NCBI RefSeq assembly: GCF_902832845.1
Contig: NZ_CADFDB010000020.1
Coordinates: 1 to 64,000, forward strand
From: Burkholderia metallica
Lineage (GTDB): Bacteria; Pseudomonadota; Gammaproteobacteria; Burkholderiales; Burkholderiaceae
Direction: 5' to 3'
DNA: 64,000 nt
A model generated the notes under the pieces. That model made no database searches. It saw only the letters and a program-made list of their open reading frames with translations, and was not told the DNA's origin. Within the stretch, counting starts at the first letter, position 1. Every line of letters begins with the position of its first letter. A program made the translations under genes and the position numbers. Below, one piece after another: positions 29,101 through 32,310 of this stretch.

Positions 29101-29740
29101 CCGAGATCGCCTTGAAGCCGACCCACGCGCCCGAATAGCGCGACAGCGCCCAGCCGTACAGGCCGAATTCGAGCATGTCGGCGATGTTCGCCGGATTCAC
29201 GACCGGCATGTGCCACGCGATCATCGCGAAGTCGCTCTGGTGCGGCATCGACGACGACACGCAACCGTGGTCGTCGCCCGCGACGACGAGCACGCCGCCG
29301 TGCGGCGACGAACCGTACGCGTTGCCGTGCTTCAGCGCGTCGCCCGCGCGATCGACGCCCGGGCCCTTGCCGTACCACATCGCATACACGCCTTCGACCG
29401 TGCGTTCGGGATCGGCTTCCACGCGCTGCGTGCCGAGCACCGCCGTGCCGCCGAGTTCCTCGTTGATCGCGGGCAGGAAGCGCACGCCGCCGGCGTCGAG
29501 CAGTTTCTTCGCCTTCCACAGCTGCTGGTCGACCATCCCGAGCGGCGACCCGCGGTAGCCGCTGACGAAGCCGGCCGTATTCAGGCCCTGTTCGGCGTCG
29601 ACGGTGCGCTGCATCAGCAGCAGGCGGACCAGCGCCTGCGTGCCGGTCAGGAAGATCCGGCCGCGCGTCGCGGTCAGGTTGTCGGTGAGGCGGTAGTCGG
29701 ACAGGGAGGGCGTGCCGTCGACGGGCAGGCGGGCGGTCAT
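26168..29740 (-). CDS. Indolepyruvate ferredoxin oxidoreductase, fused IorA-IorB type
   Basis: A 1190-residue fused enzyme that oxidatively decarboxylates aryl or branched 2-oxoacids to acyl-CoA, as in aromatic amino acid breakdown. The order is pyrimidine-binding and core domains at the N-terminus (GFVSGYRGSPLG, GKGPGVDR), a TPP-binding region (CSGCPHNTS, GIGCHFMASWMERDTTG), a ferredoxin-like cysteine cluster (CEGCGDCGVQSNC and CVNGFCPS), then the IorB gamma-type domain (GVGGTGVVTVG). The ATG at 29740 has AGGAG about 8 bp upstream. Large fused forms are typical of Proteobacteria. Confidence 0.93.
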   Translation of the reverse strand: MTARLPVDGTPSLSDYRLTDNLTATRGRIFLTGTQALVRLLLMQRTVDAEQGLNTAGFVSGYRGSPLGMVDQQLWKAKKLLDAGGVRFLPAINEELGGTAVLGTQRVEADPERTVEGVYAMWYGKGPGVDRAGDALKHGNAYGSSPHGGVLVVAGDDHGCVSSSMPHQSDFAMIAWHMPVVNPANIADMLEFGLYGWALSRYSGAWVGFKAISETVESGSTVDLDALQTRWPAPEGFTPPAGGLHNRWPDLPSLTIEARLAAKLDAVRHFARANSIDKWIAPSAQANVGIVTCGKAHLDLMEALRRLDLTVADLDAAGVRIYKVGLSYPLETTRLDTFVDGLAEVLVIEEKGPVIEQQIKDYLYNRTEGARPRVLGKHDAAGACLLSELGELRPSRILPVFAEWLARHKPALDRRERVVDLVAPQILSNEADAVKRTPYFCSGCPHNTSTKVPEGSIAQAGIGCHFMASWMERDTTGLIQMGGEGVDWAAHAMFTNTKHVFQNLGDGTYFHSGILAIRQAVAAKANITYKILYNDAVAMTGGQPVDGSISVPQIARQVEAEGVSRFVVVSDEPEKYDGHHGQFPTGTTFHHRSELDTVQRELRETPGVTVLIYDQTCAAEKRRRRKKGEFPDPDKRLFINDAVCEGCGDCGVQSNCLSVEPLETPLGRKRRIDQSSCNKDYSCVNGFCPSFVTLEGAALKKAAGAAFDEAALAARVDALPVPATHLDAAPFDMLVTGVGGTGVVTVGALISMAAHLEGKSASVLDFMGFAQKGGSVLSFVRIASSDRWLNQVRIDTQQADVLLACDMVVGASAEALQTVRHERTRIVVNTHRIPNASFVQNPDANLHADALLEKMHHAAGDGYLSSCDAQALAAKFLGDSIGANILMLGYAWQLGLVPVSLAAMMRAIELNNVAVPMNKLAFSIGRMAAGDAAGLDALWNARHAVAVHAAPETLAELIADREARLNAYGGARYVERYRALVNAAAAKGDDALTRAVATTFYRLLAVKDEYEVARLYTDDAFRTALEAQFEGVPGHAYRVKFNLAPPTVAKVGRDGSVPKKRVFGQWMWPVFGMLARVRSLRGTWLDPFGRTVERKMERALADDYETTITRAFAAMTAGNAAQVVQLADLHARVRGFGHVKVRNLAGVKRAERELALQLGIDAATSAAVQHALDEMKGAGMLKGIPVVVAK

Positions 29741-29847
29741 GGGGGGTGTCTCCTGATTGTGCTGTTCTGGGCTGCGCACCGGGGCGTCGGGCGACGCCGG
29801 CCGGAGGCGGCTGGATGGCTCTATTTTTTCGCGGGGAGACGAGAAAG

Positions 29848-29888
29848 TTTTTTCTCATCTTGCTCGGCCAGCCCCGAAGTGAGAAAAA
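29848..29888. other. Imperfect hairpin upstream of the oxidoreductase gene
   Basis: Inverted repeat TTTTTCTCA/TGAGAAAAA (about 29849-29857, 29880-29888) around a GC-rich loop, in an otherwise T/A-run-rich 100 bp. It may be a terminator or an operator; its owner is unclear. Confidence 0.35.
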
Positions 29889-29941
29889 CCGCGTAGGTTT
29901 CGGGAGGGAATTGAGAGAATTTTCGCGCCGGGTGGTGGGCG

Positions 29942-30056
29942 GCGGTTGGGCGGTTGGGCGGTTGGGCGGTTGGGCGGTTGGGCGGTTGGGCGGTTGGGCG
30001 GTTGGGCGGTTGGGCGGTTGGGCGGTTGGGCGGTTGGGCGGTTGGGCGGTTGGGCG
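29942..30056. repeat. Perfect octanucleotide minisatellite (about 14 copies)
   Basis: 115 bp of unbroken period-8 repeat with unit GGTTGGGC, about 14.4 copies without a single mismatch. The G-rich strand (GG and GGG runs with short loops) could form G-quadruplexes. It lies about 200 bp upstream of the oxidoreductase start codon. Such perfect arrays change copy number by slippage. It is not read as protein: there is no ribosome site. Confidence 0.95.
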
Positions 30057-30171
30057 AGATGGGTGGGCGCTTGCCTCGACATCGCGGGTGACGAGCGGGA
30101 CGTCGGCCGCTGGTACGGCGGCGGGTGCTCGGGGCCCGTGCGACAAGGTTTCGGCGGGGAAGCGGCGGCGT

Positions 30172-31718
30172 GCTCACCGATGGAATGCACAGCGTTCGGA
30201 GTGATTGCGGGCGCGGGATGTCCACAATGCCGGGGCTGCCGGCCGAGCGGGCGATCGCGCTCACCGTTCGATCGCACAGGGTTTCGAGTCGCGTCGTGCG
30301 CCGGATGTCCACACCTCGATCTGTCCGCCGTTCATGCGGACGCCGACGCTCACCGTCGAAATTCACAGCGCGACGAGTCGATGCCGGCAGGAGATATCCA
30401 CACCGCTGGATCGCTGCGTGGCCGCTGCGACGTTCGCGCTCAGCGTCCGGATGCACAGGGGCGTGAGTCGATTCGGCGGCAGGATATCCACATGGCCGTG
30501 CGGCCTTCGTGCGCGCCGTTGGGCAGTCGAGCGAGACGCCGGTATGGGTGTGGATATCGCCACCCGCGGACACTCAAAGCCCTGTGAATTTCGACGGTGA
30601 GTGATGGTACGGACTCGAACGAGGGTGCCGATTCTGGTGTGGACAGCCCGATCCGCGACGACTCCAAACACTGTGAATTTCAATGGTGAGCGACGGTACG
30701 CACTCGAACAAGGGTACCGAATCGGGTGTGGATAGCCCGATCCGCGACGACTCTGAACACTGTGAATTTCAATGGTGAGCGAAGGTCCGCGCTCGAACAA
30801 GGGTGCCGAATCGGGTGTGGATCGCCCGATCCGCAACAACTCTGAACACTGTGAATTCCAGCGGTGAGCGACGGCACGACGATCGAACCAGGGCACCGAT
30901 TCGAGTGTGGACAACCCAACCCGAGAGCAGTCGAGACGCTGTGAAATTCAACGGTGAGCGCGGGCGCCCTGTCGCACGAAGGCGGCACTTCGGCGCGATC
31001 AGCCGCCCCGCAACCACGCTGCGCCCCGTGGCTCCGGATTCGCGCAGACGCGGCCGAGCCGCACGCACGCGCCCCTCACCGCTGAAATACACAGCAGGTC
31101 GACTGGCTTCGGCGACCGGCTATCCAACTCGGTGCACGGACTCGAACGGAACGCGCGATCGCGTGTGCGGTTAGAATGCGCAACCGCTCGAAGCGATGCC
31201 GAAGATCACGAACGGGCACGCCGCTCGATCGGCCACCGACGCTCACCATTGAAATACACAGCGCTGCGAGTGAATTCGGCTGCGAAATATCCACACCGCG
31301 ATACGCGCCCGGATCTATCGCCGACCCGCGCGTGCCGTTAGAATGCGCGGCGCCCCGAATTCCCGCGCGACGCGCGCTCGACTCCCGGAAGTCCACACCA
31401 GGCAAGCCTCACCCGCAATCGGTCGCCAACACTCACCCTTCGGAAGCACAGCATTTTTCGTCGTTCGGAGTCGCGGTTGTCCACACCCTGCATCACGCTC
31501 ACCGATGAAAAGCACAGCGTGGCGAGTGATTTGAGAGCCGGGATATCCACAACCGACGCCGCGCAGGAATGTGCGGCCAGCGCATCGGCAATGTCGGCTC
31601 ATGCATCTGCCCGCGACCGGTGTCGAATGCCGGGAAGTCCCGCCGATGCTGGCTCCAGCGATACACTCACCGTTCGCATCCACAGCGTTTCGAGTGGTCG
31701 GGGGGCCGGTTGTCCACA
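30172..31718. repeat. Array of about 15 copies of a 54-55-bp element, unknown function
   Basis: Forward units are at 30172, 30259, 30348, 30438, 31074, 31241, 31343 (degenerate), 31431, 31497 and 31665. Reverse units are at 30549, 30638, 30727, 30816 and 30906. Forward units are 55 bp (54 in the last) and reverse units 54 bp. In the forward sense every good copy has CTCACC at positions 2-7 (CTCAGC in one), CACAG at 17-21, GAG or GAC at 28-30 followed by T, and TCCACA at the end (TCCAAC in one). Bases in between drift freely. Units are separated by linkers of 11 to about 112 bp, with a common start-to-start step near 89 bp. Open frames through the region shift frame from unit to unit and have no ribosome sites, so it is not coding. 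No transposase or terminal repeats are present. Confidence 0.9.
30549..30959 (-). repeat. Inverted block of five units forming a near-tandem 89-bp repeat
   Basis: The five reverse units are spaced 89, 89, 89 and 90 bp. Here the linker is conserved too, with GGTAC and CTCGAAC near its start and a G-rich GGGTRCCG near its end. Units two to four are very similar, which suggests recent tandem amplification of unit plus linker. Within these units GTGGAT and ATCCGC can pair across a short GC-rich loop. Confidence 0.85.
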
Positions 31719-31752
31719 TTCACGTCGCCGCTGAAGAGGCGCTCAGCCACCG

Positions 31753-32310
31753 TCACTCGGCAATCGATCGAATGATCCGCGCCGGATTTCCACCGACCAG
31801 CGTATTCGGCGGAACGTCCCGCGTCACGACCGAACCCGCGCCAACCACCGCGTTCTCGCCTACCATCACGCCGCCGATGATCGTCGCGCCGGCACCGATC
31901 CATACGTTCCGCCCGATCACGATCGGCTTCGCGACGACGAACTCGCGCCGCCGGGAAGGTTCGACGGGATGGCCGGACGTGATCAGGCTGACGTTCGGCC
32001 CGATCATCACGTCATCGCCGATTTCGAGCCCGCCGAGATCGTAGAACGTGCAGTTCTGGTTGACGAACACGTTGCGCCCGAGCTTCATGCCGGTACCGCC
32101 CGTCGCGTAAAACGGCGGGATCAGGACGAAGCGGTCGTCCACTGGCGTGCCGATCAGATCGCCGAACAACGCACGAACTTCGGCGGCATCGTCGAACGTC
32201 AGGCGATTGATCCGCGCAGTGATCGACATCGCCCGCTTGATCTCGGCCACCATCTCCGCAGATTCCGGCGTTCGTCCTGGAATGATTGTGGTGCGATCGT
32301 CGTTTGCCAT
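31753..32310 (-). CDS. Sugar O-acetyltransferase, maltose/galactoside acetyltransferase type
   Basis: A 185-residue acetyl-CoA-dependent acetyltransferase of the LacA/Maa/NodL group. The left-handed beta-helix shows hexapeptide-like repeats (GLEIGDDVMIGPNVSL, VIGRNVWIGAGATIIGG, GENAVVGAGSVVTRDV) and the catalytic His in ITSGHPVE. The end PNTLVGGNPARIIRSI is typical. The acceptor sugar is unknown. It borders the repeat array and has no obvious partner genes. Confidence 0.92.
   Translation of the reverse strand: MANDDRTTIIPGRTPESAEMVAEIKRAMSITARINRLTFDDAAEVRALFGDLIGTPVDDRFVLIPPFYATGGTGMKLGRNVFVNQNCTFYDLGGLEIGDDVMIGPNVSLITSGHPVEPSRRREFVVAKPIVIGRNVWIGAGATIIGGVMVGENAVVGAGSVVTRDVPPNTLVGGNPARIIRSIAE

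What the first reader, a model, noticed from the sequence alone, without database searches (positions are those of the whole stretch)
30172..31718. Uncatalogued array of about 15 rigid 54-55-bp elements in a gene-free 1.5-kb region
The sequence shows fifteen copies, most of them exactly 54 or 55 bp, sharing four short blocks at nearly fixed positions (CTCACC, CACAG, GAGT, terminal TCCACA) while intervening bases drift. The spacing of blocks is held even when linkers change from 11 to about 112 bp. That pattern (fixed spacing, variable filler) points to selection on protein contacts or RNA pairing, not to a decaying duplicate. No coding frame, transposase or terminal repeat accounts for it, and I know of no described Burkholderia element with this layout.
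Basis: seen in the sequence. Interest (0 to 1): 0.88.

Follow-up and report, generated by a model that had tools for sequence, protein, structure and literature searches.

The report
Origin-motif array beside Burkholderia chromosome origin
A 1.5-kb gene-free stretch on the main chromosome of Burkholderia cepacia-type bacteria carries about 14 copies of a strictly conserved element whose pieces recur at the replication origins of chromosomes 1 and 2, so it may be an undescribed site that helps control when these multi-chromosome bacteria copy their DNA.

Summary
The array is real: 14 complete 53-54-bp units (9 on +, 5 on -) at 30173-31718 plus a tail-only remnant; no site in 400 kb of control DNA comes near their scores. 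It is not plain decay: between genomes the four blocks diverge 5%, filler and linkers 19%. Units occur in 52 of 65 genomes of the genus. In 35 of these whose array I fetched, it stands at one locus, upstream of an oxidoreductase gene; 13 genomes lack it there. It was not found outside Burkholderia. A smaller cluster lies 42-63 kb from the chromosome-1 origin (11 genomes), the main array 305-380 kb (13 of 15). Its parts recur at replication origins. CACAG is the only 5-mer over threshold at own oriC1 and the top 5-mer at the own chromosome-2 origin (third in a relative). CTCACC is the core of the chromosome-2 iteron. Genome-wide, CACAG-N6-GAGT clusters only in the arrays and at oriC1 (4 of 4 genomes). 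I read it as a replication-control array, a sink or coupling site for origin factors. The binder is unidentified. The terminal TCCACA block is not an oriC-type DnaA box, and position does not follow the Vibrio crtS termination rule. Protein binding and function are inferred, not shown.

The parts
30173..30226 (+). unit 1 (54 bp)
   Evidence: PWM 64.2 bits
30260..30313 (+). unit 2 (54 bp)
   Evidence: PWM 61.4 bits
30349..30402 (+). unit 3 (54 bp)
   Evidence: PWM 67.1 bits
30439..30492 (+). unit 4 (54 bp)
   Evidence: PWM 45.6 bits
30549..30601 (-). unit 5 (53 bp, first of the inverted block)
   Evidence: PWM 60.5 bits
30638..30690 (-). unit 6 (53 bp)
   Evidence: PWM 66.5 bits
30727..30779 (-). 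unit 7 (53 bp)
   Evidence: PWM 66.9 bits
30816..30868 (-). unit 8 (53 bp)
   Evidence: PWM 54.1 bits
30906..30958 (-). unit 9 (53 bp)
   Evidence: PWM 61.5 bits
31075..31128 (+). unit 10 (54 bp, altered tail)
   Evidence: PWM 42.7 bits
31242..31295 (+). unit 11 (54 bp)
   Evidence: PWM 67.0 bits
31379..31397 (+). tail-only remnant of a unit (TCCACA block)
   Evidence: read in the sequence; not reported by the PWM scan
31432..31485 (+). unit 12 (54 bp, GAGT block altered)
   Evidence: PWM 42.5 bits
31498..31551 (+). unit 13 (54 bp)
   Evidence: PWM 67.5 bits
31666..31718 (+). unit 14 (53 bp)
   Evidence: PWM 63.9 bits
26168..29779 (-). flanking gene: pyruvate/indolepyruvate ferredoxin oxidoreductase-like protein (the name indolepyruvate is recalled; Pfam POR, TPP_enzyme_C, DUF6537)
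   Evidence: ORF; Pfam; marks the conserved locus
31753..32310 (-). flanking gene: hexapeptide acetyltransferase
   Evidence: ORF; Pfam Hexapep; near the array in 28 of 35 genomes

Best explanation
The array is a cis-acting replication-control site on chromosome 1. Each unit is a rigid platform for DNA-binding proteins: CTCACC, CACAG, GAGT and [A/G]TCCACA, the CACAG, GAGT and TCCACA blocks starting at positions 16, 27 and 49 of the 54-bp unit, multiples of 11 apart, so that contacts would fall on one DNA face. The pair CACAG-N6-GAGT is an element that also occurs twice inside the chromosome-1 origin, and CTCACC is the core of the chromosome-2 iteron. I propose that the factor acting at oriC1 through CACAG-N6-GAGT, and possibly the chromosome-2 Rep initiator through CTCACC, bind the array cooperatively. 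When the fork passes (second cluster about 50 kb, main array usually 305-380 kb from oriC1, roughly 1.5 and 9-12 minutes at the 33 kb/min reported for B. cenocepacia) the number of sites doubles, which withdraws or remodels initiator and so limits re-initiation and/or times the second chromosome. Shown: the units, the selection on the blocks, the locus, the shared motifs. Inferred: who binds, cooperativity, titration or coupling.
For: Selection: block divergence 5.1% against 18.9% and 19.1%. Motif sharing: at own oriC1 (650 bp) CACAG is the only 5-mer passing a threshold of 7 copies and 6-fold. At the own chromosome-2 rep region CACAG ranks first among 5-mers (22 against 1.0 expected) and CTCACC first among 6-mers (15 against 0.5); in G002 CACAG ranks third (17 against 1.1) and CTCACC first (18 against 0.6); in the array 14 against 1.2 and 14 against 0.6 (background from G002). 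Enriched 6-mers shared by array and chr2 origin: CACAGC, CTCACC, GCTCAC, nominal P 1.9e-4; none with chr3 origin. Genome-wide, CACAG-N6-GAGT occurs 27, 28, 24 and 19 times in four genomes (reversed-pattern control 15-24); sites within 2 kb of each other are found only in array 1, cluster 2 (two genomes) and oriC1 (two sites 165 bp apart in 4 of 4). oriC1 carries it in 16 of 18 array genomes and 0 of 11 array-less ones. Chr2 rep regions of array species hold 16-26 CACAG (14 with full upstream) against 1-15 in 13 array-less species, one of them short. Du et al. 2016 (passages) independently list CTGTGCA as a 7-mer clustered at all three origins and give the c2 iteron as ctCCCGAAAAacCTCACCTtt. 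Both clusters lie on the oriC1 side of chromosome 1.
Against: No binding data. Origin matches are partial: no complete unit occurs at any origin, and no iteron-like CCCGAAAA-NN-CTCACC with up to 2 mismatches occurs in the array (10-12 in the chr2 rep region). The longer array-core matrix scores at most 10.6 at oriC1, below the best of 380 kb control DNA (13.1); at the chr2 rep region it exceeds the control in only 2 of 14 array genomes (13.7, 18.8). Two array-bearing genomes (G010, G023) lack CACAG-N6-GAGT at oriC1, and CACAG-N7-GAGT is also common there (11 of 18; 3 of 11 array-less). The CACAG counts at chr2 origins of the two groups nearly touch (15 and 16). CACAG is dense at oriC1 of array-less species too (7-14). 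One or two changes of array presence on the tree suffice, so species counts are not independent. Enriched k-mers overlap, so P is approximate; the 5-mer test gives only 0.043 for chr2 and 0.36 for chr3. 13 of 65 genomes live without the array. In two rearranged genomes it lies 484 and 840 kb from oriC1.
Confidence: 0.5

Rival explanations
1. A DnaA titration or DnaA-inactivation locus (datA-like): each unit offers two weak DnaA boxes, AAATNCACAG and [A/T]T[A/G]TCCACA, and soaks up DnaA after oriC1 has fired.
For: The tail is TTATCCACA or one step from it in 231 of 297 54-bp units; array and cluster 2 are near oriC1; CACAG is also part of the two G002 oriC1 boxes TTATCCACAG.
Against: oriC1 boxes are TTATCCACA followed by G in G002; the array tail is ATATCCACA in 179 of 297 54-bp units and TTATCCACA in 17, and is followed by G in 4 of 297. 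ATATCCACA does not occur in 400 kb sampled outside the array, where TTATCCACA occurs 5 times (both are rare 9-mers). It leaves CTCACC and GAGT unexplained.
Confidence: 0.18
2. A crtS-like trigger: the chromosome-2 Rep initiator binds the array through the iteron core CTCACC, and replication of the array licenses chromosome-2 initiation.
For: CTCACC is almost invariant in the array and the core of the c2 iteron; chr3 iterons do not share it. A 2026 study (passages) reports broad contacts of B. cepacia ori2 with chromosome 1 and says that timers beyond crtS and methylation in Agrobacterium remain to be identified.
Against: The distance to oriC1 does not follow (L1-L2)/2: rho -0.30, P 0.28, 15 genomes, some with odd contig lengths, unlike the end-control rule reported for Vibrio crtS (passages). 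Array-less species keep the same iteron core. The iteron's other half is missing. CACAG-N6-GAGT points to oriC1; no exact copy was found at ori2.
Confidence: 0.17
3. A binding array for a nucleoid-organising, segregation or other chromosome protein not concerned with initiation.
For: Multi-site, orientation-tolerant, perhaps helically phased, origin-proximal.
Against: Would not predict that its motifs are the ones enriched at the origins of chr1 and chr2.
Confidence: 0.15
4. An upstream regulatory region of the oxidoreductase gene.
For: Beside the 5' end of that gene in 35 of 36 loci fetched.
Against: The gene keeps a similar upstream sequence without the array in array-less genomes (by eye in four); the second cluster lies elsewhere; the distance to the gene varies and exceeds 3 kb in G010.
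Confidence: 0.04
5. A decaying satellite or a family of small RNAs.
For: The 89-bp tandem period.
Against: Block conservation against drifting filler, no paired structure, no Rfam match, mixed orientation.
Confidence: 0.02

Closest known systems
datA / DARS and other DnaA-box clusters (E. coli and others)
   Same: Gene-free chromosomal loci with initiator-type sites at a conserved place (abstracts in the listing; further details recalled).
   Different: Here 14 composite units with three further conserved blocks; the box-like tail differs from oriC1 boxes at both ends.
crtS of Vibrionaceae
   Same: A chromosome-1 site tied to the initiator of chromosome 2 (passages); the array shares the c2 iteron core.
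   Different: crtS is a short site occurring once per genome whose position follows termination synchrony (passages); this is a multi-unit array whose position does not.
Iteron arrays of plasmids and chromids (c2 iterons of B. cenocepacia)
   Same: Repeated sites; the c2 iteron core CTCACC is block 1.
   Different: The unit is 54 bp, lacks the CCCGAAAA half of the iteron, and is on another chromosome.
Origin 7-mer CTGTGCA of Du et al. 2016
   Same: Its reverse complement TGCACAG occurs in 147 of 475 array units, and CACAG at the block-2 position in 442.
   Different: Described at the origins in the passages read; the array and CACAG-N6-GAGT are not mentioned in them.

Membership tests
DnaA-box titration cluster (datA-like) | Sites match the DnaA box used at the organism's own oriC | tested here: not met
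   oriC1 TTATCCACA+G; array mostly ATATCCACA, 17 of 297 TTATCCACA, G next in 4 of 297
DnaA-box titration cluster (datA-like) | Origin-proximal, conserved place | tested here: met
   305-380 kb from oriC1 in 13 of 15 genomes
DnaA-box titration cluster (datA-like) | Binds DnaA; deletion changes initiation | not testable with these tools
   needs experiment
crtS | Carries initiator-2 recognition sequence | tested here: inconclusive
   shares CTCACC of the c2 iteron, not its other half
crtS | Position follows chromosome sizes for synchronous termination | tested here: not met
   rho -0.30, P 0.28, n 15
crtS | Single site per genome | tested here: not met
   array plus a second cluster
c2 iteron cluster | Full iteron CCCGAAAANNCTCACC | tested here: not met
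   0 in the array with up to 2 mismatches, 10-12 in the chr2 rep region
REP/BIME or MITE | Palindromes or terminal repeats dispersed over the genome | tested here: not met
   own genome: 14 hits in the array, 6 in cluster 2, 4 weak hits elsewhere; no pairing
CRISPR array | Near-identical repeats with spacers of constant length | tested here: not met
   copies 61-79% identical to the reference copy, linkers 12-136 bp
Catalogued RNA family | Match to an Rfam model | tested here: not met
   0 matches at E up to 1 in 29700-32000

The most novel reading that the evidence does not exclude
The array is the missing replication timer of a Burkholderia lineage: one chromosomal element read by both the chromosome-1 origin factor (CACAG-N6-GAGT) and the chromosome-2 initiator (CTCACC), so that its duplication links the two initiation events by a mechanism different from crtS.
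Probability: 0.25. Interest if true: 0.92.

Novelty: new variant of a known kind. Interest (0 to 1): 0.74.

Why it matters
How multipartite genomes outside Vibrio time their chromosomes is open; a 2026 survey (passages) calls for finding such timers in further systems. This array is a concrete, deletable candidate with sequence ties to two origins, and CACAG-N6-GAGT gives a handle for finding an origin-binding protein that the passages I read do not name. If it proves unrelated to replication, it is still a genus-restricted, strongly selected 1.5-kb array with no match in the collections searched.

Tried and rejected
The array as the chromosome-1 origin itself: rejected; in G002 the GC skew turns from mostly negative to positive between about +25 and +100 kb of dnaA and TTATCCACA boxes lie at +68 to +115 kb, not at the array. 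The dnaA-rpmH stretch as origin in the own genome: only one TTATCCACA there. RNA element: no consensus pairs, no Rfam match. Viral or plasmid element: no exact pattern match in viral contigs, no blastn match in plasmids; the phage collection was not searched. Chr3 or plasmid Rep iterons: no shared core. crtS-type scaling: not met.

Helical phasing of whole units: all 297 same-strand spacings under 300 bp give a best period of 11.2 bp (R 0.75). After dereplication by linker similarity the best period drifts to 12.35 (R 0.54; R 0.47 at 11.15; 36 clusters), so the period is not settled. The spacing classes near 156/167/178/190 among related linkers are suggestive only.

Weak model hits outside the clusters were discarded: the own-genome hit at C3:117917 (E 0.003) reads as coding sequence of an aminotransferase-like protein (my own reading, no database call); C1:1432313 (E 0.18), C16 and C9 (E above 1) were left. 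A family-level sample beyond the genus gave nothing (stricter filters). Literature searches for a Burkholderia intergenic repeat of this kind, origins and DnaA boxes, DnaA-box titration clusters, and crtS or secondary-chromosome control in Burkholderia gave listings without a description of it; the library is open-access only and I saw listings and passages, not whole papers.

Weakness in method: the oxidoreductase query was translated out of frame by mistake; it still located the homologous DNA, and one search used the correct protein. One search scanned the wrong flank for 11 of 13 loci; one search repeats it on the right one. Positions were entered by hand as midpoints. The k-mer background is from another genome (G002).

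Full report
WHAT IS THERE. The window holds 14 complete units between 30173 and 31718, nine on the + strand and five, 30549-30958, on the - strand; eight are 54 bp and six 53 bp long. A 15th, tail-only copy lies near 31379-31397. Many neighbours are 87-90 bp apart, so much of the array is an old tandem of about 89 bp in which only part of each period is kept. A weight matrix from 381 pattern-found units of 36 array loci and one cluster-2 locus, the own genome not among them, scores the window units 42.5-67.5 bits; no site in 400 kb of chromosome-1 DNA of a relative (20 stretches of G002, array excluded) reaches 10 bits.

The consensus over 292 different 54-bp units is ACGCTCACCGTTGAAATnCACAGCGTTTCGAGTGG...GGAT(A/G)TCCACA; relative entropy averages 1.85 bits per position in the blocks, 0.69 in the filler and 0.15-0.23 in the flanks. 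Because the units were found by a pattern that asks for the blocks, I also compared orthologous arrays by alignment, with the classes set on one member of each pair. In 14 disjoint pairs of loci the blocks differ at 5.1% of positions, the filler at 18.9% and the linkers at 19.1% (means); in all 193 aligned segments of at least 500 bp the blocks differ less than the linkers, though in the closest pair (98.8% identical) all classes are near 1-2%. That is selection on the blocks.

WHERE IT IS FOUND. The own genome has the array and a more degenerate second cluster at C11:254150-254848. In the genus, 52 of 65 genomes have 9-23 matches each, 13 none at E 0.001. In a family sample, 19 of 200 genomes match, all of the own genus (1 of 25 genera). 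An exact pattern of the four blocks in 84,980 species genomes hits 55 stretches, all titled Burkholderia, including B. cenocepacia, cepacia, ambifaria, dolosa, ubonensis, lata and stagnalis; degenerate arrays elsewhere would escape an exact pattern. None was found in viral contigs, and a search with the array DNA found nothing in plasmids.

Of 36 array-1 loci fetched (35 genomes), the oxidoreductase 5' region lies in the same stretch in 35 (the 36th, L074, is the other half of a split contig) and the acetyltransferase in 28. The 13 array-less genomes all keep the oxidoreductase gene. Its upstream 1.5 kb has no array there: a loose pattern of the left half gives single hits in 7 of 13, TCCACA at most twice. 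In the four whose sequence I printed, the next genes of the neighbourhood follow closely in three, read by eye. On a tree of the chr2 rep gene (29 genomes) array presence needs 2 changes, well-supported branches force only 1, and 25% of bootstrap trees show one, so species counts are not independent evidence.

POSITION. dnaA itself is not at the origin: in G002 the skew change and the TTATCCACA boxes lie downstream of dnaA. I took as oriC1 the 0.5-kb DnaA-box-rich stretch at 68.1-68.6 kb, whose homologue was found in 29 of 29 genomes; Du et al. call the exact c1 origin uncertain (section 6). The array lies 305-380 kb from oriC1 in 13 of 15 genomes and 484 and 840 kb in the other two (G009, G058), where dnaA and the array have moved relative to oriC1. 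The second cluster lies 42-63 kb from oriC1 in 11 genomes (G000; eight; G008 and G036 with one listed unit each). The distance of the main array does not track (L1-L2)/2 (rho -0.30, P 0.28), so the termination rule reported for crtS (passages of PMC5854411) is not met.

LINK TO ORIGINS. I counted k-mers at the origins, after seeing by eye that the chr2 iterons contain GGTGAG, the complement of CTCACC. In the own chr2 rep region CACAG is the top 5-mer (22 against 1.0 expected) and CTCACC the top 6-mer (15 against 0.5); in G002 third (17 against 1.1) and first (18 against 0.6); in the array they number 14 against 1.2 and 14 against 0.6; at the own chr3 rep region 10 against 1.0 and 2 against 0.5. 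At own oriC1, CACAG is the only 5-mer passing a threshold of 7 copies and 6-fold. In 2194 overlapping 1.4-kb windows of the G002 sample plus the window, the two densest places for CACAG are oriC1 (13) and the array (12); the next place has 7. CACAG is dense at oriC1 of array-less species as well (7-14).

Du et al. 2016 (PMC4948915; section 6 and passages) describe the 7-mer CTGTGCA as clustered in all three origin regions and give the c2 iteron as ctCCCGAAAAacCTCACCTtt. Thus block 1 equals the iteron core, and block 2 is the origin 7-mer's core. The other iteron half is absent from the array, so identity of the binder is not shown.

More specific is CACAG-N6-GAGT, blocks 2 and 3 at array spacing. 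It occurs 27, 28, 24 and 19 times in four genomes (G000, G002, G018, G012), of which 11, 10, 6 and 11 in array 1; the reversed pattern occurs 17, 16, 24 and 15 times, so the scattered rest is background. Sites within 2 kb of each other occur only in array 1, in the second cluster (G002, G018) and at oriC1, where two sites stand 165 bp apart in 4 of 4. oriC1 has it in 16 of 18 array-bearing and 0 of 11 array-less genomes; N7 spacing occurs in 11 and 3, others less. Two array-bearing genomes, G010 and G023, lack it. The longer array-core matrix does not single out oriC1 (best 10.6) against 380 kb of control (best 13.1); at the chr2 rep region it reaches 13.7 in the own genome and 18.8 in G025 but 6.9-13.1 in 12 others, and up to 11.5 in array-less species. 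So the likeness to oriC1 is confined to these nine bases.

MECHANISM. Blocks 2, 3 and 4 start at positions 16, 27 and 49 of the 54-bp unit, multiples of 11 apart, and the 89-bp unit period is about eight such steps. Over all 297 same-strand spacings under 300 bp the best period is 11.2 bp, but dereplicated data do not fix it. I infer proteins bound along one face. The simplest role is that of an extra, non-origin set of sites used at oriC1 (and partly ori2), duplicated soon after initiation, hence a sink or remodelling platform for initiator activity. DnaA alone fits poorly, because the array's tail box is mostly ATATCCACA rather than the TTATCCACAG of oriC1. A pure crtS model fits poorly because of the position test.

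NOVELTY. The literature searches named in Tried and rejected gave no description of the array. It is closest to datA-type and iteron-type control arrays and differs in unit, composition and rule of position, hence 'new variant of a known kind'.

Noticed in passing
window 29941-30052: Perfect octamer tandem repeat GGCGGTTG, 14 copies, between the oxidoreductase gene and the array; a likely length-variable locus.
   Followed up: no
L009 3150-3850 (G000:C11 about 254.15-254.85 kb): Second, degenerate cluster of the same unit beside ORFs that look like an ECF sigma factor and its anti-sigma factor (named by eye, no database call), about 49 kb from oriC1.
   Followed up: partly
L097 (G002:C2:113.9-114.8 kb): Another place with two TTATCCACA boxes and 7 CACAG in 1.4 kb, about 46 kb beyond the stretch taken as oriC1; could be part of a split origin.
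   Followed up: no
L173 1-1400: The chr2 rep upstream region carries, besides the CTCACC iterons, 22 CACAG motifs; array-less species have fewer.
   Followed up: partly
window 31160-31192 and 31327-31359: A 33-bp repeat (79% identical) with TTAGAATGCGC in two array linkers, unlike the unit.
   Followed up: no
G000:C3:117917-117958, G002:C2:901059, G012:C1:933251, G018:C2:979641: A partial unit match with CACAG-N6-GAGT recurring in several genomes; in the own genome it also has TTATCCACA and reads by eye as coding sequence of an aminotransferase-like gene. Probably coincidence.
   Followed up: partly
G009 and G058 chromosome 1: dnaA and the array have moved together relative to oriC1, as after an inversion.
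   Followed up: no
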